The notes: generated by a model from the sequence alone, not told the origin. DNA of 44,716 nucleotides from a virus (IMGVR_UViG_3300041809_000655:1-44716); one strand, 5' to 3'; positions 6,905 through 40,230 are shown, counted from the stretch's first letter. Numbers and translations: made by a program.

Positions 6905-7198
6905 ATGAATACCGATCAATTAAAAGAAATAATTAACTTACTGAATAACACAACTGTTCAAGCCAAAACAGCTTTTTTCGTTTGGCTTGGGTATAACTTA
7001 CTTGTTGACTTGTTAGTCGAAGGTTCAATTTTATTTGTTATTGTATACATAACACGAACAATAAGCAACCACTTTTTTGACAATAACTGTTTGTATGAAT
7101 TATATCAAACAGCACGAAAAAAAGTTGGAAAAGAACCAACAAGAAATGTTTGGAGTTTTGAAGTAAAAGAAGTCATAAACCTTCTTGAGAAGAAATGA
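6905..7198 (+). CDS. Membrane protein, 97 aa
   Basis: A small protein with hydrophobic stretches at about residues 22-37 (AFFVWLGYNLLVDLLV) and 40-51 (SILFVIVYITRT), probably one or two membrane passes, then a charged soluble C-terminus. The sequence is notably A+T-rich compared with neighbouring genes. The last bases overlap the next start (ATGA). Possible roles such as superinfection exclusion cannot be distinguished. Confidence 0.6.
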   Translation: MNTDQLKEIINLLNNTTVQAKTAFFVWLGYNLLVDLLVEGSILFVIVYITRTISNHFFDNNCLYELYQTARKKVGKEPTRNVWSFEVKEVINLLEKK

Positions 7199-7512
7199 CT
7201 ACCTATCATATTCCAACCGGCTACATCACCGTCTCCTGTGATACAGTTCTTGAAACACCGTCGTGCCTCGAACTATACCTTTCTAAACCCTGGGAAACAC
7301 TCCGGCTCATGCTTGAACAAAACGGCATCGAAATCGAACCCATTATCACTGAATCTCGTTCCGAATGGGTGCGAGTAAAAGGTATCCTATACGAACTAAG
7401 ATGGTCAGACAATCATAACTATCTAAAACGAATATCGAAACATGTTGATGGTAAGGTTACCGACATTTCATACAATTCCCTTCCACCTTTAATCAGAAAC
7501 GCTTTACAATGA
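7195..7512 (+). CDS. Hypothetical protein, 105 aa
   Basis: Unrecognised. It overlaps both neighbours by four bases (ATGA at 7195 and at 7509). The sequence looks like a compact alpha/beta domain (WVRVKGILYELRW). It is translated together with the UDG-exonuclease gene, so a replication link is likely by position only. Confidence 0.6.
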   Translation: MTTYHIPTGYITVSCDTVLETPSCLELYLSKPWETLRLMLEQNGIEIEPIITESRSEWVRVKGILYELRWSDNHNYLKRISKHVDGKVTDISYNSLPPLIRNALQ

Positions 7513-8591
7513 ACCCCGTTCCTAACAAATTCCCAACTATTGATCCTGGAAACCAAAGAATTGCCTTAATTGGCGAAAGTCCCGGCGAAGTAGAATGTTC
7601 ACTCGGTGAACCATTTGTTGGCTCATCAGGCAACCACCTCTCTGGTCAACTCAGCACTGCCGGTTTCTCTATTGCTTGTTGCTTCAAAGGAAACATTTGT
7701 CAATTCCATCCCGACAAAAATCGCATCTCTACTTTCAAGTGGAACGAACCTGAAATACAAGAAGGGCTTGCAGCATTAGCACTTGACCTTGATAGGTTCA
7801 AACCAAACATTTGTGTTCTTCTCGGTAACACACCCTTAAAAGCCGCAAAAGACCCAGACAGTGTTCATGTCCTGATTCCCAAACTATTCCGCTACAAGGT
7901 TGGCTCATGGCGTGGTTCATTATTTCTCGGCACTGGTATATTTAAAAACCGCAAGTGCATGGCCGCTTATCACCCAGCTTACATTTTACGCGACTACAAA
8001 GTCGCACCACTACTCCAATTCGACCTACGTCGTGCTATCAAAGAAAGCACTACAAATGAACTCATACTCCCACAACGTCTGCTCAAAACAAACCTATCTT
8101 ATGAAGACATTATTGAAACATTATCAACTATACGCTCACTCAAGCAACCTGTCGCACTTGACATCGAAGGTGGACTCAACACTATGTCGTGCATCAGTTT
8201 TGCAACTTCTGAAAACATGGCGTTTATTCTTCCCTTTACACGCAAAGACGGTTCGTCTGTCTGGAGCGAGTCTCAGGAGTGCAAGATACTTAAAGAGCTT
8301 GCGATAACTCTCGAAGATCCGGCTGTGCCGAAGATATTACAAAATGCAATGTATGATACGTTTGTATTACAATACTCATATCGTATCCGTGTGCGTAACA
8401 TTGCTGACGACACAATGCTAAAACATTGGTCACTTAATGCTGAACTTAAAAAATCTCTTGCCTTGCAAACAAGCATTTATACGCGCGAACCATATTACAA
8501 GCATGAACGTCTCCAAGCCAGTGATCCACAAGAGAAACTCGACGCAGAAGAAAATAAAGAAGAAGGTGAGGAACCTAATGAAAGTGAATAA
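7509..8591 (+). CDS. Uracil-DNA glycosylase (family 4/5-like) fused to the front part of a 3'-5' exonuclease domain
   Basis: Residues 1-175 are a UDG-superfamily domain: ALIGESPGE (19-27) matches GEAPGxxE of family 4, EPFVGSSG follows, LLGNTPLKA is the middle strand, and HPAYILR (155-161) is the second active motif. The cysteines that bind the Fe-S cluster at the N-terminus of family 4 are missing. Residues 213-335 are a DnaQ/PolA-type exonuclease front: ALDIE (D218, E220, Exo I), QNAMYD (N279, D283, Exo II) and DDTML. The Exo III motif lies on the next ORF. A Glu-rich tail precedes a TAA that is in the same frame as the polymerase gene, with only AAA between stop and the next ATG. Role: removal of uracil and proofreading at the phage fork. 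Confidence 0.7.
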   Translation: MNPVPNKFPTIDPGNQRIALIGESPGEVECSLGEPFVGSSGNHLSGQLSTAGFSIACCFKGNICQFHPDKNRISTFKWNEPEIQEGLAALALDLDRFKPNICVLLGNTPLKAAKDPDSVHVLIPKLFRYKVGSWRGSLFLGTGIFKNRKCMAAYHPAYILRDYKVAPLLQFDLRRAIKESTTNELILPQRLLKTNLSYEDIIETLSTIRSLKQPVALDIEGGLNTMSCISFATSENMAFILPFTRKDGSSVWSESQECKILKELAITLEDPAVPKILQNAMYDTFVLQYSYRIRVRNIADDTMLKHWSLNAELKKSLALQTSIYTREPYYKHERLQASDPQEKLDAEENKEEGEEPNESE

Positions 8592-8594
8592 AAA

Positions 8595-10265
8595 ATGCAA
8601 ACACAATTTAGCGAAACCGACAAACGATTCTACGAATACTGTTGTAAGGATTCAGCAGTTACTTACGAAATCAATAGCTACTTGGACCCCCGAATTAAAG
8701 CAACTGCCCGGCAACAATATCTTTTTAACGTTAACCTACTCTTGCCTTTCCGATACATGGAGTTGCGAGGTATTCAATATGACCACGAAAAAGCACGGCT
8801 TCGTTGTAACATTCTCAAGCAAAAAATGTTCGCCTGTCAAGCCACCCTCAACGCTCTCTGTGGCTTCGGATTCACCTTTACTAATCTTAAAGAAATTACA
8901 GAAAGAGCAAAACAGGTCTGTCTTACAGTTAAACAAGACCGCGAACGCAAGGCATATATTGAAACCTACGCCCGTATCGAAACCTTGCTTCGAGAACCTC
9001 ACCCAAGCCTCGAAACAGTGGGAGAACTCGAAGACCTTTGTGAAGTCTCTCTTAACGCAGGAAGCAAATCCCAGTTGAGTGAGTTTCTATATGGCACATT
9101 AAAGTTACCAACACAATGGACAAAGAAACGCAATGAAACACCACGCATCACAATAGACTATGAAGCACTCCTCAACCTCTCGAAGTATTGCCAACAAGAA
9201 AATCTCGGCTTCCAAGGTAAAATCATACTTGCTCTTATTGAACTTCGGGCCTTATCAACGCGCTGCACTAATCTTAACTGCAATTTTGATCAAGACACCA
9301 GGATGCGGTTCGGGTATAACATCGTCGGTTCAAATACTGGACGAACCCAATGTTATATCTCTCCAACAGGCAGAGGTCGTGCTGGTCAAGGTATTCCAAA
9401 ATATGCAACGAATGAAGAAGCACCCGGTGGAATTAAAGGTGACCGTGACTTGTTTACAGCGGACAATGGAAACTTTATCTTCGAGTGTGATCTTGAAGGT
9501 GCCGACTCCTGGACAGTTGCAGCATATTGTGCAATGCTTGGTGATAGCACGATGCTTACTGACTTACAACTCGGTATTCGTCCCGCCAAACGCATCTGCT
9601 TAAAAATGCGTGGTGTTCAAATTGACTACCACAATCCTCAAGCTGTTCTTGAAGCAAGTGCCGCCGTTAGTAAATCCTCCTGGGATTACTTTGCTTGCAA
9701 GCGTGTTGTCCACGGCGGTTCCTACCTGGAAGGTGCTCGCACCATTGTGCGTAACATTCTCAAAGACTCCGAGGGTAAAATGTTTCTTCCAGAGAGTGAA
9801 GGCAAGGCATTAAAAGACTTACTATTGCGTGAGTGCTATCCCGGTATTACTCGCTATCATCGTTACATTGAAACCCAACTTTCCAAATCCCGCACCTTAA
9901 TCGCCGCTAGCGGCCAAGTTCGCTTATTCAACGGCAGATCAGATGAAATACTAACAAAAGCGGTTGCCTTCGAACCGCAAGCAAACACAACATATGCAAC
10001 TAATAAAGCACTATGGCGTCTCTGGAGTGACCCAGAAAATCGGCAACAGTGTCCTTATAATCAGCATCTCATCATTGAACCCTTGCACCAAGTGCACGAT
10101 GCCCTGCTTGGTCAGTTTTCAATTACCTCTGTGGTATGGGCGATTGAAAAAATCAAGTCTTATTTCAATAATCCGATAACAATTGCGGGACAAACTATCA
10201 CGATACCGTTTGAAGGAACATATGGTAAGTATTGGGGTGACAAGGTTGGGGAAATAAAACCATGA
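8595..10265 (+). CDS. Family A DNA polymerase, with Exo III motif at its N-terminus
   Basis: 556 residues. Y15-x3-D19 in YEYCCKDSAVTYE is the Exo III motif that belongs to the exonuclease domain of the previous ORF. The polymerase palm follows: TGRTQ near 248, motif A ECDLEGADSW (D299), motif B CKRVVHGGSY (from 368), PQANTTY near 461, and motif C QVHDALL (H501, D502). This variant of motifs A and B is known from phage PolA enzymes. It is in the same reading frame as the preceding gene, separated by TAA-AAA, and no clear Shine-Dalgarno sits at the usual distance, so coupled re-initiation or readthrough may supply it. The last four bases overlap the helicase start (ATGA). Confidence 0.85.
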   Translation: MQTQFSETDKRFYEYCCKDSAVTYEINSYLDPRIKATARQQYLFNVNLLLPFRYMELRGIQYDHEKARLRCNILKQKMFACQATLNALCGFGFTFTNLKEITERAKQVCLTVKQDRERKAYIETYARIETLLREPHPSLETVGELEDLCEVSLNAGSKSQLSEFLYGTLKLPTQWTKKRNETPRITIDYEALLNLSKYCQQENLGFQGKIILALIELRALSTRCTNLNCNFDQDTRMRFGYNIVGSNTGRTQCYISPTGRGRAGQGIPKYATNEEAPGGIKGDRDLFTADNGNFIFECDLEGADSWTVAAYCAMLGDSTMLTDLQLGIRPAKRICLKMRGVQIDYHNPQAVLEASAAVSKSSWDYFACKRVVHGGSYLEGARTIVRNILKDSEGKMFLPESEGKALKDLLLRECYPGITRYHRYIETQLSKSRTLIAASGQVRLFNGRSDEILTKAVAFEPQANTTYATNKALWRLWSDPENRQQCPYNQHLIIEPLHQVHDALLGQFSITSVVWAIEKIKSYFNNPITIAGQTITIPFEGTYGKYWGDKVGEIKP

Positions 10266-11567: not shown

Positions 11568-14500
11568 TTACTGCTGCTTATCAATTAAATTACGCATCTT
11601 ATTCCTTGCTATTCCGTGTGCCTTGTTTATGAACATTTCCAACTCTTTCTTCTTACGTTCAGGCGTCGTCGCTCTCTCGACAAATGGCTTTGCTTTACGT
11701 ATGGCATCCTCATAACATGACACCCTTATTTTCTCATACTCATCACGTTCCTTTGGCAGAAGGTAAACCTTCACACCTGTCTTCGTTAAATACTCCGCAA
11801 AACCTGGCACTTCCAAATGTTGTGCCTTCAGCCATGCCCTGGTTTCCGACTTTAGATCACTACTCACCTGTTGCTGAACTTGATAAGCACGAGCAACCTC
11901 ATCTTGCTCCATCGTTAGACGTTGACGAGGAGACATACTTGAGGAATCACGCGCGATAGACTTCTGTAACTTCGCCCTCTGTGCAAGGTTCATTTTTTCT
12001 ACACCCGGCACATTGCGTTCTTGTTCAAACAAACTTGGTTTACGTCCCTCTCCAACACCCGACGCCGCAAGAAGTTGCGAACCAAGTGCTTTTGTAGTTG
12101 CCTTACCCTTACCTTCACCGGCTTCACGTGACTGAAAATACCGCGCAATAGCAGGATTACTTTGACGCAAAGCTGCAAGCAAGTTTTGACCTAAACTATG
12201 TGGATCATCACTTTCTAAATACAAACCAACATCATGTCCTGTTAAAGCTATCGCACCCTCACGCACAACCGGCCCTTCCCACGGGGAAGCATACCCTCTC
12301 ACCATATCCATGAAGGCATCATGTATAATGTCCTTTTCACCACGACCCTGACTCATGTCTTTATATGCTGACATTACACCGACATTTCGCAATCCCCTTC
12401 GTATCAATATATTCTGCACAAGGTCAATCTGTATCGGTTTACCTTGTTCATCATTTTTCCCTGTGTCAATAGCGCCGGGTGATACACCAGGTCGCCCAAA
12501 CACATTACCAGTGGTATAATAATTCACCACCATCGGCATAGCCATTAAAGTGCTAACAAGACCAACAGCTTCTACAAGACGCATCCTCATTGCTGCTTCA
12601 CGATTAGCGGCTTCAACACCGGGATTAAGTGTAAGTCTCTGCAAGGCGAGACGATTAAAATTCTTACCTGCCACGATAAACGGTGACACACTTGACTGCT
12701 TTGCAAACTGTTCAATTTTACCCATGAGTCTTGTATTATACTGTCCCATTCTATTGATAAACTCACGTCGACCTTCTTGCGTATCTTTTGCAAGGTCTCG
12801 TTCAACAAGATTGTCATACATACGTGAGAGTGTCAAACGCGACGCCTTATCAATCAACTGCACAAGACGTCCTGTTCCAATCTTACCAGCCAATCCTGCA
12901 TGAACTACAGCACCGCGTCCTGCACCGATACGTGCAAATTCCGCTAGTTCCTTTTGCACATCTGGTGTATCAAGCATTACATCTTTCGTTGCTTTTGCAA
13001 CACGCACAATGGTATCAAGACCTCGCACACCAGGTATTTTCCTTGCAAGGTCAACAGCGAGATTCTCACCTCCCTGTGATCCTGCTATTGCAGAAAACAT
13101 GTTTCGCAAATGCACTGTCACATCAACCGGTCCAATAAGTTGAGCATCGGTAAACCGGTCAATAAGCCATTGTCGTGCACCTTGTTCAACTTTACTATCA
13201 GTTTGAAGAACTTGTCTTAGTTCACTATGAACATCATTTCGCACCCAGAGGTTTAACGGTGTTCCGCTGCGTCTATCAATAGCTATTTTTGTTTTACCTT
13301 CTGGTGCTTCAACGCCCGGCCTGACAACTTCGGCAAGGCCAGCTTTTACATACTCTTGATACATATGTTGCTTGGTGTATTCTTCATAATTTCCCTGTAC
13401 CATGCGTTCCATAATGTTACGAAAATTGAAATCATAATTTTTACCTGTGCCTTTGATTTCCTTGCCAAACGCTGTGCCTCTTTTCAAAGGATTGGTAATA
13501 TCACCTTGTTTCGCACCACCACGGAGTGCAGCATCAAACCTATCACCAAGAATGTTTTTCAGGTTCACAAAGGCACCACTTTCCAGCCCGGACAAGGCTA
13601 TTTTGCCACCAAGACGAACATGCATTTCACGCGCCGGTGCTTCGACTAACCTCTTAAATCGTTCAATAGCCGCTTTCACCTCTGGATCATTAAGCACAGT
13701 GGAAACCTCTGCTTGTGTATGTAACGGTGAATCGGGTGAATCCCATATATGTTGCACCTTTGCTGCTGCTGCGTCGTTACCTTCTTCTTTAAACTTATAC
13801 CATACAGCTCTAAGTCTATCTTCAACAAGTGCTGCACCGACTTTATTCTGCCACTCGACATCATTCCATCGTGCTTTACCTTCTGATGCTGTTTGTCCTG
13901 ACTTTGCAACAGCACTACCAATATAAGGTTCCGTTCCAAGCACTTCACTTGCAAGAGACCTAGCCATCAATGGTGCTGCTATTCTTGCACTCGCGTAACG
14001 TATCGCAGCATTACCGACATCTCTACTCAACGCCATTGTTTTCGGCATCGACCAACCGGCAATTTGTTTTAGTTTCTGATTATACCAATCACTGAACTTA
14101 CTCTTAGGTGGATCAGTAAAAACACTATCCGCTATCCATAATACATCTTCACCGGGTAACGCTTTCTGTTCTTCACTTGGCATCTTACGTGGTGCTTGTT
14201 TCATATCACCACCACGTTGTTCAATCTCCCAACGTTCCTTAATGGCTTGGAGTGAGTCAGGGAGTTCGTTTGGTTTCTTCGATCTCTCACTAAGTTCCAA
14301 GATACTATCCATTGCGGATTCGAGTGCAGAGCCTTTGGTGATACCAAATAGTTTCTTCACCACATCAGTGACATGTTCCCACAAGGTTTTACCTTCATAG
14401 GGTGTATGGTTTAACATGTCACGAAAGTTACCCTTTGGTGTAAAAATCCCTGCTGCCATTTCACTATCGCCGGTGAGAAAGTAAAGCGGGTCTTTCCAGA

Positions 14501-17255
14501 CGGTCGGATCAAGATCATACGCATGAAACAAAGATGCTTCGTCTTCATAACTAGCATTGGAGTTTTTCCTGTTCCAACCTTTATATACCTCGTTGTAAAA
14601 CTTTCTCACCCTTGCCGGCAATGTATCAATCATATGCTGCCGCAATTCGCCGAACCTTGTCGCCGCAACTTTTTGCTCAGCTGTCTGTGGACTCTCAAGA
14701 AGATGATCAAGTGCAGCGTGACCAGCTTCATGTAAAATGGTATCAATTAAATTACCCTGCTCACCATGAACATCGAGGTAAGATGTATGCACCGTCGGCT
14801 CATAACTTGCTCGATCAGAACCCGCAGCTTTGCCAAGTTCGATGTTTGAGAATGATAAAATATGTCCAAAGTGCTTGTTCAAAAACTCCGCGAAGTCAGT
14901 TTGCTGCTTCGTAGCACCTTCAAGCTTTGTAACCCTGTCAAGCACTTCACTCATCGTGCTTTTCTTGTTAAGTTGTAAACGAGCAGCTTGCATTGGAAGG
15001 TTGTGGAGTTTGTCAATCTGTTCCTTGTTGCTGGTTGGTGTTTGTTTCACCTCCACCGGCATTTTATCTTTGTCGAACAAAGAAAAAGCATAGCGGTCTT
15101 TAACCTTTGAAAGGTCAAACGATTTTGCGGTGATGTCGGTTTTAAATGTGCCGTCGGGGTTGCGGAAGATGAGGTTAGTTCTTAATGGTATGTCTGATTC
15201 TTGACCATAACCATAACCATGCGCCATTTTATGCTCACCAAAACTCACCTTTTCTCCCTCACTTCCGGTGAGTTCTTTCAAGATACGAGGAATGATGGTG
15301 TCGTAGTGAAGACGCATACCTTTGCCCTGTTTAATGCTTTCAACTTGTTCTGCGGGTAACCGGTCAGCAACTTGACTAATACGATCATGCCCCTCCATCA
15401 TCATCGCACTCTCAGCATCTTGCACCGCGATATGTTTTGCACCTTGAGCAAGCGCTTGTTGTATAGCGGCTTTAAGTGTGAGACGCTCCCAGTCTTTGAG
15501 AAGGGGGTGTTGTGGTTGAACACCACTACTTACAACATTTTCGGGGTCTTTAACACCAAAAGTTTCTTGTGCTTCTCGATACTGTTGCGCCCAATCACTC
15601 TGCACCTCGATGATATGAAATGTATCACCTTCCATGTAACCGCGGAAGAAGCCGATGGTGTTAGGGGGAAAGGAGTGCGTGGAGGAAAATAAAATACCAC
15701 GCGCTTTGTTATGTATTAAAGTTGTTCCTTGATCATTATGTCCTGGAGGCGGTTCATGGGTTGGTAGCACCACCGCTCCCTCAACATACCCCGGCATTTC
15801 ATTTTCTGGTTTGGGTGAGATTGATTGCCAGCGAGTTTTATTTTCCTGTTCTAGATTACCATACTTATCATGCAACTCAAAAAACCTTTTTGCTTTAGGC
15901 CCAAGTTGTTGTTCAAATTTAACACGAGTTTCTTGTGCTTTTGCAAGTATTTCTTTGTTTAACTGTTGTTTAAGTTGTGTTCTTAGTTCTGGAGTGTTGG
16001 CAGCTAAAAATCTTTTTTTGTATTCTTGGTATTTCGCATCCGCATCAGCAACCGCATTCGCATACGCATTCGCATACGCATCCGCATACGCTTCCGCATC
16101 CGCATCCGCATACGCATACGCATACGCAAGACTGTTTTTTACACTAAGCAACCAACCAATTTTTCTTTTTTCTGGTATGTTATCTAACCATTCATGTTGT
16201 AACTTTGCAAATTCTTCTTGTTCAGGTTTTTGTTTAACAGCACCTTTCATTTTAATCTCCACCCTCGGCATCACTTCACTTATCTTACTCGCCAACTCCT
16301 CACGTGTCGGATGTTTTGACAACTCTTCTTTCAACACTGGTTCCATCAGTTTCCACTCCGTTGGAGTTAACTCCCCCCTCTGCACCTGGTTCTTTAATGT
16401 ATTATAAAGCTGTTCCGGCGCAATGTTTTTGTTCGCAGGATCAAGGGCCATGTTGCGCACAAGATATGCACCAGTAGACACTATATCTCTTTCTTGTAAC
16501 TTCTTCTCCGGCGTCTTCGGCTTGGTGGGTATTTGCTTATACTCCGGCAACACATCAATCGGGGCCTTTGCAACGGTTTCACTTGGTTTAGCTTGTGCAG
16601 CTTCCTGTGCTTGCATGTTGCGAAGGCGCATACGTGCTACTTGATCAGGTGTAATCTGCAAGCCGGGTTTCTCAATAGCTTGTGTTGGTTCAGCCTTCAA
16701 CCCCTCATGCACACCTGCACCAAGTGCACCAACCATCGGTGCACCGAGAACTTCAGATGTAACACCTTGTGCAATTTGTCCAACATCGCGTTGCGCTGGT
16801 GCTTTACCCATCTCTGTGCCAAGTTCCTTTGGCACATCAACTGCAACATTCTTACCCATTTGCAAAGCAAAAGCACTACCTAATAAGGCACTAAGTTTCG
16901 GCAGCGTTGCAAGACCCAAAGTGCCAGCACCAAGTAGTGAGGTAAAAGACGACAAGAAATCATCAGCAGCTTGTCTAACACCCATCGCGGCTTTTACCGT
17001 CGGACTCTTACTTTCCTCTGCTTCTTTAACAGCAGCAGCTGGTGGTTCAGCCTTAATGATTGGTGTGTTTACAAGTTGCCACAATGAATCCAAAGGATGA
17101 TTCATGATGTTGCCGGTAGGAACACCTGTGTTCCAAGGAATCTGCCGGTTAGATTCAAACTGTGAATTTAACCTACGAGAAGCAGGCACCACAATCGGGT
17201 CAGAGGCAATACCACTTTGAGCCGGTGTTACAATAGGATCGTCTGTAATAGGCAT
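11568..17255 (-). CDS. Giant polyvalent internal virion/ejection protein, 1895 aa
   Basis: The last and largest late gene. Recognisable parts: an N-terminal Pro/Ala-rich region; an (Ala-x)n repeat at about 375-407; a domain with IIEVQSDWAQQ near 550 and LKDWERLTLKAAIQQAL, the large polyvalent-protein motif seen in many phage ejection proteins; a zincin-like HEAGH at 842-846; and a C-terminal helical region (about 1360-1560) of the type found in the same giant proteins. Such proteins are packed in the head and enter the cell with DNA. It follows three coiled-coil core-type genes, as gp16 follows gp14 and gp15 in T7. TAATG joins it to the upstream gene. Confidence 0.75.
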   Translation of the reverse strand: MPITDDPIVTPAQSGIASDPIVVPASRRLNSQFESNRQIPWNTGVPTGNIMNHPLDSLWQLVNTPIIKAEPPAAAVKEAEESKSPTVKAAMGVRQAADDFLSSFTSLLGAGTLGLATLPKLSALLGSAFALQMGKNVAVDVPKELGTEMGKAPAQRDVGQIAQGVTSEVLGAPMVGALGAGVHEGLKAEPTQAIEKPGLQITPDQVARMRLRNMQAQEAAQAKPSETVAKAPIDVLPEYKQIPTKPKTPEKKLQERDIVSTGAYLVRNMALDPANKNIAPEQLYNTLKNQVQRGELTPTEWKLMEPVLKEELSKHPTREELASKISEVMPRVEIKMKGAVKQKPEQEEFAKLQHEWLDNIPEKRKIGWLLSVKNSLAYAYAYADADAEAYADAYANAYANAVADADAKYQEYKKRFLAANTPELRTQLKQQLNKEILAKAQETRVKFEQQLGPKAKRFFELHDKYGNLEQENKTRWQSISPKPENEMPGYVEGAVVLPTHEPPPGHNDQGTTLIHNKARGILFSSTHSFPPNTIGFFRGYMEGDTFHIIEVQSDWAQQYREAQETFGVKDPENVVSSGVQPQHPLLKDWERLTLKAAIQQALAQGAKHIAVQDAESAMMMEGHDRISQVADRLPAEQVESIKQGKGMRLHYDTIIPRILKELTGSEGEKVSFGEHKMAHGYGYGQESDIPLRTNLIFRNPDGTFKTDITAKSFDLSKVKDRYAFSLFDKDKMPVEVKQTPTSNKEQIDKLHNLPMQAARLQLNKKSTMSEVLDRVTKLEGATKQQTDFAEFLNKHFGHILSFSNIELGKAAGSDRASYEPTVHTSYLDVHGEQGNLIDTILHEAGHAALDHLLESPQTAEQKVAATRFGELRQHMIDTLPARVRKFYNEVYKGWNRKNSNASYEDEASLFHAYDLDPTVWKDPLYFLTGDSEMAAGIFTPKGNFRDMLNHTPYEGKTLWEHVTDVVKKLFGITKGSALESAMDSILELSERSKKPNELPDSLQAIKERWEIEQRGGDMKQAPRKMPSEEQKALPGEDVLWIADSVFTDPPKSKFSDWYNQKLKQIAGWSMPKTMALSRDVGNAAIRYASARIAAPLMARSLASEVLGTEPYIGSAVAKSGQTASEGKARWNDVEWQNKVGAALVEDRLRAVWYKFKEEGNDAAAAKVQHIWDSPDSPLHTQAEVSTVLNDPEVKAAIERFKRLVEAPAREMHVRLGGKIALSGLESGAFVNLKNILGDRFDAALRGGAKQGDITNPLKRGTAFGKEIKGTGKNYDFNFRNIMERMVQGNYEEYTKQHMYQEYVKAGLAEVVRPGVEAPEGKTKIAIDRRSGTPLNLWVRNDVHSELRQVLQTDSKVEQGARQWLIDRFTDAQLIGPVDVTVHLRNMFSAIAGSQGGENLAVDLARKIPGVRGLDTIVRVAKATKDVMLDTPDVQKELAEFARIGAGRGAVVHAGLAGKIGTGRLVQLIDKASRLTLSRMYDNLVERDLAKDTQEGRREFINRMGQYNTRLMGKIEQFAKQSSVSPFIVAGKNFNRLALQRLTLNPGVEAANREAAMRMRLVEAVGLVSTLMAMPMVVNYYTTGNVFGRPGVSPGAIDTGKNDEQGKPIQIDLVQNILIRRGLRNVGVMSAYKDMSQGRGEKDIIHDAFMDMVRGYASPWEGPVVREGAIALTGHDVGLYLESDDPHSLGQNLLAALRQSNPAIARYFQSREAGEGKGKATTKALGSQLLAASGVGEGRKPSLFEQERNVPGVEKMNLAQRAKLQKSIARDSSSMSPRQRLTMEQDEVARAYQVQQQVSSDLKSETRAWLKAQHLEVPGFAEYLTKTGVKVYLLPKERDEYEKIRVSCYEDAIRKAKPFVERATTPERKKKELEMFINKAHGIARNKMRNLIDKQQ
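16035..16130 (-). repeat. Hexanucleotide tandem repeat coding for (Ala-Tyr/Asp/Asn)n
   Basis: Inside the giant gene, GCATAC, GCATCC and GCATTC-type hexamers (plus strand view CGCATA/CGCATC) repeat about fifteen times and code for an alternating Ala-x stretch at residues 375-407. The unit length keeps the reading frame, so slippage would only change the number of dipeptides. Confidence 0.8.
17152..17168. repeat. Dispersed palindrome, site 4 (inside the giant gene)
   Basis: GATTCAAA-C-TGTGAATT within the wider inverted repeat GGTTA...TAACC. It lies about 30 codons inside the giant ejection-protein gene, so it is constrained by coding sequence yet keeps the extended symmetry. Confidence 0.75.
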
Positions 17256-39738: not shown

Positions 39739-40230
39739 ATGAAAATGACGATTGACGATCTCGCTGCCATGTCGCCGTGTGCCGACGGGCTGGCGTTTGC
39801 ACGAAAATGTGGCTCGCTCAAAAGGGCATGGGCGACGTGCCGGGAACCTTCCTGGCTCTTTTGGTTTGCGCAGCGCACAAAAATTATTGACAAGCCACAA
39901 GCCATCGAACTCGCGGTGGCGTTTGCAGAACGTGTGTTGCCCCTGTATGAGCGCAAATACCCCGACGATCTCCGTCCCCGAAAGGCACTGGAAGCGGCTA
40001 AAAAATGGTTGAAGGCACCGACCGAAGAAAATAGAACCGCCGCCGCCTCCGCCGACGCCTGCGCCGCCACCGCCTACGCCGTCGCCGACGCAGCCAACGC
40101 CGACGACGCCGCCTACGCCGCCGCCAAGAACGAGGAAAAAAAGTGGCAATGCGACAAAATCCGGGAAGTATTAGGAAACCCTTTTTTACCGCGAAGAAAA
40201 GTTAGCGAAAGCGACATTCGCCCTGCATAG
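39739..40230 (+). CDS. Imm-5-like alanine-repeat protein, 163 aa
   Basis: The pattern fits a family common in phages and as putative immunity proteins: C14, then KRAWATCREPSWLFWFAQR, AVAFAERVLPLYERKYPDDL and ALEAAKKWL, then an (Ala-x)n region (about 97-130) with Ala-Asp, Ala-Tyr and Ala-Asn, and a C-terminal CDKIREVLGNPF. Function unknown; Imm-5-like proteins are often found near toxins. The gene is visibly more GC-rich than its neighbours, suggesting a separate origin. SD is AAGAAAAAA only. Confidence 0.6.
   Translation: MKMTIDDLAAMSPCADGLAFARKCGSLKRAWATCREPSWLFWFAQRTKIIDKPQAIELAVAFAERVLPLYERKYPDDLRPRKALEAAKKWLKAPTEENRTAAASADACAATAYAVADAANADDAAYAAAKNEEKKWQCDKIREVLGNPFLPRRKVSESDIRPA
40028..40130 (+). 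repeat. GCC-rich alanine codon repeat
   Basis: GCCGCC, GCCGAC, GCCTAC and similar triplet pairs code for an alternating Ala-x segment in the Imm-5-like gene, parallel to the GCATAC/GCATCC repeat in the giant virion gene at 16035-16130. Confidence 0.7.

What the first reader, a model, noticed from the sequence alone, without database searches (positions are those of the whole stretch)
7509..10265. UDG-exonuclease-polymerase frame split by one in-frame TAA inside the exonuclease domain
The UDG/exo ORF (ends 8591) and the polymerase ORF (starts 8595) are in the same reading frame, separated by TAA-AAA. Exo I and Exo II are upstream of the stop, Exo III (Y15-x3-D19 of the second ORF) is downstream. 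A functional proofreading domain needs either association of both polypeptides or readthrough giving a protein of about 918 residues. A Glu-rich linker sits at the split.
Basis: seen in the sequence. Interest (0 to 1): 0.75.

Follow-up and report, generated by a model that had tools for sequence, protein, structure and literature searches.

The report
Phage DNA polymerase split across proofreading domain
A phage DNA polymerase is made as two proteins because its gene is cut in two inside the proofreading (error-correcting) part; the cut is real and inherited, has arisen several times at this same spot in related phages (often with a DNA-cutting homing gene sitting in it), and the two halves very probably reassemble into one working enzyme.

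Summary
ORF1 (7509-8591) carries a family-4-like UDG domain plus Exo I and II. After TAA-AAA, in the same frame, ORF2 (8595-10265) carries Exo III plus a family A polymerase. It is not a read error: an independent virus, 66% identical in the polymerase (L001), has the same split. Intact relatives are single proteins of about 810-995 residues.

The junction is a recurrent fission site. Within the window's own family the tree forces at least three separate split changes. In two of those lineages (L018; L166 and L175) an HNH homing-endonuclease gene sits exactly between the halves. A second clade, including the cultured Caulobacter phage Kuura, is entirely split there (39 of 39 distinct loci), with gaps of -1 to 1745 nt; HNH genes come and go in that gap. 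Catalytic residues of Exo I, II and III are conserved in essentially all split loci although they lie on two genes.

Best reading: a "genes-in-pieces" proofreading polymerase working as two chains, probably opened by a homing endonuclease that the window lineage has lost. Readthrough is unlikely: most split relatives are out of frame or separated by other genes. Association of the two chains is inferred, not tested.

The parts
7509..8591 (+). ORF1, 360 aa: UDG-fold domain plus N-terminal part of the 3'-5' exonuclease domain (Exo I, Exo II)
   Evidence: ATG overlaps the stop of the preceding ORF 7195-7512
7533..8000 (+). UDG superfamily domain (PF03167), residues 9-164
   Evidence: 61.5 bits, cut-off 24.3
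8160..8168 (+). Exo I motif D218-I-E220
   Evidence: column invariant in alignment A4
8343..8357 (+). Exo II motif N279-A-M-Y-D283
8517..8588 (+). acidic, disordered C-terminal tail of ORF1, absent from intact relatives
   Evidence: pLDDT below about 70 over residues about 331-368 in the model
8589..8594 (+). stop TAA and spacer AAA between the two ORFs
8595..10265 (+). ORF2, 556 aa: last helix of the exonuclease domain (Exo III) plus family A polymerase
   Evidence: TGA overlaps the ATG of the next ORF at 10262
8637..8651 (+). Exo III motif Y15-C-C-K-D19
9489..9491 (+). polymerase motif A Asp (DLEGAD), D299 of ORF2
   Evidence: invariant in A4 (fused residue D661)
9699..9701 (+). polymerase motif B Lys, K369 of ORF2
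   Evidence: invariant in A4 (fused residue K731)
10095..10100 (+). polymerase motif C His-Asp, H501-D502 of ORF2
   Evidence: invariant in A4 (fused residues H863, D864)
8578..8580 (+). out-of-frame ATG with the best Shine-Dalgarno-like sequence near the junction (AGGTGAGGA); possible relic of an inserted gene's start, or chance
   Evidence: compare HNH starts at this position in L018, L166 and L175

Best explanation
The two ORFs encode the two chains of one family A replicative polymerase that proofreads. Chain 1 brings a UDG-fold domain and most of the 3'-5' exonuclease (Exo I and II). Chain 2 brings the last exonuclease helix with Exo III and the whole polymerase. Both are made from one operon, ORF2 by re-initiation just after the TAA, and they assemble so that the exonuclease site is completed in trans. 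The gene was split at a surface loop between Exo II and Exo III that is a recurrent target of HNH homing endonucleases in these phages. The window and L001 most likely descend from a form with such an insert and now lack the endonuclease. Shown: the split, its inheritance, its repeated origin, HNH genes in the same gap of relatives, conservation of all catalytic residues. Inferred: physical assembly, proofreading activity, re-initiation, and that the window's own split began with an HNH insertion (about 0.55 for that last step; about 0.85 for two-chain function).
For: Split confirmed and shared with L001. Intact homologues: 64 loci. Split changes at this junction: the careful tree forces at least 3 within the window family, and one clade for all five split rows is rejected (p-AU 9.7e-58). 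The Kuura-type clade is all split (39/39 rows, support 99). HNH genes lie exactly in the gap: L018 (PF13392 3.7e-6, phrog_99 3.7e-21), L166 and L175 with ATGA overlaps on both sides, and L083, L096, L102, L087, L136, L137. Pairs with and without the HNH gene and otherwise 85-97% identical flanks (L083/L088, L096/L100, L102/L099) show that it is lost or gained while the split stays. Exo residues: Exo I D and E 67/67, Exo II N and D 68/68, Exo III Y and D 68/68 in split loci (67 of these at this junction). Purifying selection on both halves, dN/dS 0.06-0.25 in three Kuura-type pairs. Window against L001: exo part 68% identical, polymerase 67%, UDG part 42%. The read-through form folds with pLDDT 92.5 and pTM 0.89, and the split lies in the only long low-confidence segment; best solved matches are DNA polymerase I (TM 0.77 by target). 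Published precedent: split 43A/43B of Aeromonas phage 25 co-purify and polymerise; split NrdA of phage Aeh1 is active (PMC2988022). Kuura, a plaque-forming isolate (PMC9959647), has the halves separated by two genes.
Against: No direct evidence of association. AlphaFold was run on the joined chain only, so it locates the split but does not test binding. The window itself has no HNH remnant that can be recognised securely. The HNH step is documented in sister lineages, not in the window's own ancestor. A separate origin of window+L001 and L018 is only weakly required (p-AU 0.044, 0.073), so one gain followed by re-fusion remains possible there. All loci except Kuura are metagenomic.
Confidence: 0.78

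Rival explanations
1. Programmed or leaky readthrough of the TAA gives a working protein of 918 residues; the split products are by-products.
For: The halves are in frame in both the window and L001. The joined chain folds with high confidence.
Against: 43 of 67 loci split here are out of frame, and the in-frame share (24/67) is what chance gives; gaps reach 1745 nt and hold other genes. TAA followed by A is not a known leaky context (general knowledge), and no hairpin follows it (z about 0.2). ORF2 has its own ATG 3 nt after the stop. The sequence after the stop is not alike in L001 (TAAGAAAACCCAATG).
Confidence: 0.06
2. The split arose by ordinary mutation (a stop plus an internal start in a tolerant loop) without any homing endonuclease; two-chain function as in the best explanation.
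For: The window and L001 have no insert; the loop is disordered and tolerates length change. Two Kuura-type loci (L111, L113) have gaps of -1 nt with no insert.
Against: HNH genes occupy exactly this junction in two other split lineages of the same family and repeatedly in the Kuura clade, and are lost or gained while flanks stay. ORF1 tails of window and L001 (ERLQ.., MRLQ..) resemble those of the HNH-bearing L166 and L175 (ERIQ..) more than the usual intact ERK/DRK sequences.
Confidence: 0.33
3. The split has abolished proofreading: ORF1 is now just a UDG-type protein and ORF2 a polymerase without exonuclease.
For: Exonuclease-less family A polymerases exist (general knowledge). ORF1 on its own lacks Exo III.
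Against: Exo residues are conserved on both chains in all split loci. In window against L001 the exo part is as conserved as the polymerase while the UDG part decays and loses its GESPG motif. dN/dS is low on both halves of the Kuura clade.
Confidence: 0.06
4. Sequencing or assembly error creates a false stop.
For: Reads cannot be inspected here; single-record metagenomic contig.
Against: Same split in L001, a separate contig; about 32 extra residues and a new start codon, not a single-base change.
Confidence: 0.01

Closest known systems
Split gene 43 (43A/43B, family B polymerase) of Aeromonas phages 25 and 44RR
   Same: Phage replicative polymerase encoded as two cistrons; in phage 25 a homing endonuclease gene is associated with the split; the halves co-purify and polymerise (PMC2988022).
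   Different: Family B, not family A; its split position relative to the exonuclease motifs was not checked here; no UDG domain; no endonuclease in the window's gap.
Aeh1 split nrdA with mobE (genes-in-pieces ribonucleotide reductase)
   Same: HNH homing endonuclease inserted in an essential coding region, two chains that form an active enzyme (PMC2988022); same logic as L018, L166 and L175.
   Different: Different enzyme; in the window the endonuclease is absent.
Split DNAP of OM43 phages MEP401/MEP402
   Same: Family A phage polymerase in two ORFs with a small ORF between them (PMC10580990).
   Different: Split inside the polymerase domain; the exonuclease domain is in the first ORF. Resembles the second split site seen here in L067-L069.
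Caulobacter phage Kuura Kuura_029 + Kuura_026 (OQ067476)
   Same: Same domain content and same junction: UDG+Exo I/II, then Exo III+polymerase.
   Different: Distant clade (separate in the tree), two genes between the halves, annotated as 'hypothetical protein' and 'DNA polymerase'; the split is not mentioned in the passages of its paper retrieved here (PMC9959647).
Intact UDG-exonuclease-PolA phage polymerases (e.g. L002, Microcystis phage Mel-JY34, MW202489)
   Same: Same domains in the same order.
   Different: One chain of about 780-995 residues.

Membership tests
Family A DNA polymerase (PolA) with DEDDy 3'-5' exonuclease | Exo I D-x-E, Exo II N-x3-Y/F-D, Exo III Y-x3-D | tested here: met
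   All present in the window, but on two chains
Family A DNA polymerase (PolA) with DEDDy 3'-5' exonuclease | Polymerase motifs A (Asp), B (Lys), C (His-Asp) and fold | tested here: met
   Invariant in A4; Foldseek best hits are DNA polymerase I, TM 0.77 by target. PF00476 only 20.7 bits, below its cut-off of 34.3
Family 4 uracil-DNA glycosylase | UDG superfamily fold and family match | tested here: inconclusive
   PF03167 61.5 bits, above cut-off; TIGR00758 UDG_fam4 67.3 bits, below its cut-off of 125.3
Family 4 uracil-DNA glycosylase | Four Fe-S cluster cysteines including an N-terminal C-x2-C | tested here: not met
   No C-x2-C before GESPG in ORF1, whereas distant relatives L011 and L013 keep one; so not filed as a member, only as a UDG-fold domain of unknown activity
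Genes-in-pieces enzymes made by homing endonuclease insertion | Contiguous gene in relatives, two ORFs here at an internal position | tested here: met
Genes-in-pieces enzymes made by homing endonuclease insertion | Homing endonuclease gene between the halves | tested here: not met
   Absent in window and L001 (gaps 3 and 9 nt); present in L018, L166, L175 and several Kuura-type loci. So the window is filed as a two-chain split enzyme, with HNH origin only inferred
Genes-in-pieces enzymes made by homing endonuclease insertion | The two chains form an active enzyme | not testable with these tools
   Only conservation and selection are available
Split intein / intein-mediated trans-splicing | Intein sequences at the junction | tested here: not met
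   By inspection: ORF1 ends in an acidic tail and ORF2 starts at its ATG about 12 residues before the Exo III segment; no intein motif at the junction

The most novel reading that the evidence does not exclude
The Exo II-Exo III loop of phage UDG-PolA enzymes is a general fission hot spot where HNH homing endonucleases repeatedly turn a one-chain polymerase into an obligate two-subunit one; in the Kuura clade this is fixed, the two halves behave as separate genes with cargo between them, and the UDG+Exo chain has become a detachable editing subunit with a newly evolved interface (the conserved charged C-terminal tail of chain 1 and the M-x-I-I-x-T-like start of chain 2), loosely comparable to a separate proofreading subunit.
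Probability: 0.4. Interest if true: 0.75.

Novelty: new variant of a known kind. Interest (0 to 1): 0.6.

Why it matters
Split phage enzymes are usually single curiosities. Here one structural position, in the middle of the proofreading active site, has been split several times independently, and the same position holds homing endonuclease genes in some relatives, lacks them in others and is intact in still others. That gives a natural series (intact, occupied, emptied, permanently split with cargo) for watching a mobile gene create a multi-subunit enzyme. It also predicts a proofreading site built from two chains that can be tested at the bench with two short genes.

Tried and rejected
Readthrough signal: no structure after the TAA. 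Out-of-frame ORF starting at 8578 as a real gene: it overlaps the conserved polymerase region and there is no sign that it is one; kept only as a possible relic. AlphaFold of ORF1 alone without alignment gave pLDDT 34 and is uninformative. Alignment A2 was too diverse for a collection scan. Scan of bacterial genomes gave one relative, in a Rickettsiales MAG. Plasmid search found only partial matches of UDG type. phmmer against the PDB found no match for ORF2; the fold search did. L004's upstream ORF matches endonuclease VII/HNH PHROGs but lies outside the polymerase. dN/dS of window against L001 is saturated. Paper searches found no description of this split; most subscription journals are not held.

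Full report
CHECK. The sequence is as described. ORF1 7509-8591 and ORF2 8595-10265 are in one frame, separated by TAA AAA. ORF1 matches UDG (PF03167, 1.2e-16) and the PolA exonuclease (PF01612, 3.3e-8); ORF1 and ORF2 match successive parts of the phage polymerase family phrog_17. Exo I (D218, E220) and Exo II (N279, D283) lie in ORF1, Exo III (Y15, D19) in ORF2. ORF1 starts in an ATGA overlap with the gene before it and ORF2 ends in an ATGA overlap with the primase-like gene after it, so this is a tightly packed replication operon. The window is a viral record of IMG/VR.

NOT AN ERROR. Contig L001, 66% identical in the polymerase, has the same two ORFs at the same place, also in frame, with TAA GAA AAC CCA ATG at the junction. 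The halves are separated by more than a stop: almost all intact relatives have exactly 28 residues between the conserved S-I-Y-T and the Exo III Asp, the window has 39+19 plus two codons. The extra sequence is the acidic tail of ORF1 and a short new N-terminus of ORF2.

INTACT RELATIVES. A scan with the polymerase of the window and three relatives found 66 loci. In 64 of the loci fetched, UDG, exonuclease and polymerase are one ORF. In the trees window and L001 form a pair (100/100) nested among intact polymerases.

OTHER SPLITS AT THE SAME JUNCTION. In the window's own family L018, L166/L167 and L175 are also split between Exo II and Exo III. In each, the gap is filled by one small gene: 131, 143 and 157 aa, all HNH endonucleases (PF13392 above its cut-off; phrog_99 for L018). 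In L166 and L175 the HNH gene overlaps the upstream stop and the downstream start by ATGA on both sides. The careful tree forces at least three split changes in this family; holding all five split rows as one clade is rejected (p-AU 9.7e-58), holding window, L001, L166 and L175 together is rejected (9.8e-5), and holding window, L001 and L018 together is only marginally rejected (0.044; 0.073 in the smaller set).

THE KUURA CLADE. Caulobacter phage Kuura, a cultured plaque-forming phage, has UDG+Exo I/II (369 aa, annotated hypothetical), two small genes, then Exo III+polymerase (560 aa). A scan with this polymerase type found about 60 further loci, and every Kuura-type one with both halves visible is split at this junction. 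They form one clade, 39 of 39 distinct rows, support 99. Gaps run from -1 to 1745 nt (one pair of half-genes even overlaps by 175 nt in the mechanical ORF list), and 43 of the 67 loci split at this junction are out of frame. The gap holds HNH genes of several kinds (L083, L096, L102, L087, L136, L137) or small nucleotide-metabolism genes (DUF1937/DUF7768 deoxyribosyltransferase-like, RNase H). Three pairs of close relatives differ by the presence of the HNH gene directly at the end of the first half-gene while the flanks are 85-97% identical. So the HNH gene can be gained or lost while the split remains, which is the step needed for the window. Whether the Kuura split itself began with an HNH gene is not shown.

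FUNCTION KEPT. Across 68 split loci (one of them, L007, is split just after Exo III; several are near-copies) Exo I D and E are present in 67/67 readable, Exo II N and D in 68/68, Exo III Y and D in 68/68. dN/dS is 0.06-0.25 on both halves in three Kuura-type pairs. Between window and L001 the exo part is 68% identical, the polymerase 67%, the UDG part 42%, and L001 has lost the GESPG motif. The exonuclease is therefore constrained like the polymerase, the UDG is not. These are inferences from conservation; no activity or binding was measured.

STRUCTURE. AlphaFold of the joined chain (stop read as Gln, 45 homologues) gave pLDDT 92.5, pTM 0.89. The only long low-confidence segment is residues about 331-368, and the stop is residue 361. 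Foldseek finds DNA polymerase I first (8oo6, TM 0.77 by target). The split thus removes no folded element; it cuts a loop and leaves the last exonuclease helix, with Exo III, on chain 2. This locates the split but does not test association.

EXPRESSION. ORF2 has no good Shine-Dalgarno sequence of its own; about half of the genes of the window have none either. Re-initiation after the TAA is the simplest route (inference). An AGGTGAGGA-ATG at 8578 in the +1 frame is the best initiation site nearby; HNH genes of L018, L166 and L175 begin at the equivalent place, so it may be a relic, but this could be chance.

READTHROUGH. Unlikely for the reasons above. The in-frame state of window and L001 is what inheritance from one frame or chance would give.

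COMPARISON. The logic is that of the genes-in-pieces ribonucleotide reductase of phage Aeh1 (mobE insertion, active enzyme) and of the two-cistron gene 43 of Aeromonas phage 25 (halves co-purify and polymerise) (PMC2988022). A split family A polymerase is known in OM43 phages, but inside the polymerase domain (PMC10580990). I found no description of a split between Exo II and Exo III in the papers held. I therefore rate it a new variant of a known kind.

UNCERTAIN. Whether the window's own split began with an HNH insertion (about 0.55) or by plain mutation; whether the UDG domain is active (no N-terminal C-x2-C; TIGR00758 below cut-off).

Noticed in passing
L133:4857-7334, L136:4971-7382 (also L134, L135, L137): Polymerase half is 804-854 aa because of an intein-like insert (starts CLTxDHEVLT, ends KISITGN before S/T-N-Y) in the motif B region (GHG|SNY) (sequence read for L133 and L136 only). 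No Pfam intein hit was obtained.
   Followed up: partly
L067:3885-6555 (also L068, L069): A second split site just before polymerase motif A: ORF 594 aa and ORF 299 aa overlap by 14 nt in different frames.
   Followed up: partly
L144:3956-7090 (Vibrio phage vB_VspS_VS-ABTNL-3): UDG-exo-polymerase N part, a 184-aa gene of unknown family, then the polymerase C part: another split in the polymerase domain of a named phage.
   Followed up: partly
L007:1727-4364 (MW202554): Two polymerase ORFs split after Exo III, with an NrdR-type zinc-ribbon ORF between them.
   Followed up: partly
L001:4996-5982: UDG domain of the sister virus is shortened and has lost the GESPG motif while the exonuclease part stays intact.
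   Followed up: partly
Kuura-type gaps, e.g. L108:4624-4965, L098:3114-3452, L080:4157-4678, L126:4510-4950: Cargo genes between the two polymerase halves: DUF1937/DUF7768 deoxyribosyltransferase-like, RNase H, a cysteine dioxygenase-like protein.
   Followed up: no
window 39739-40230: ORF matching Imm5-like putative immunity protein (PF21805, 1.7e-8) in a phage record.
   Followed up: no
window 11568-17255 (- strand): One ORF of 1895 aa, not analysed; L001 has a large ORF on the same strand next to the primase-like gene.
   Followed up: no
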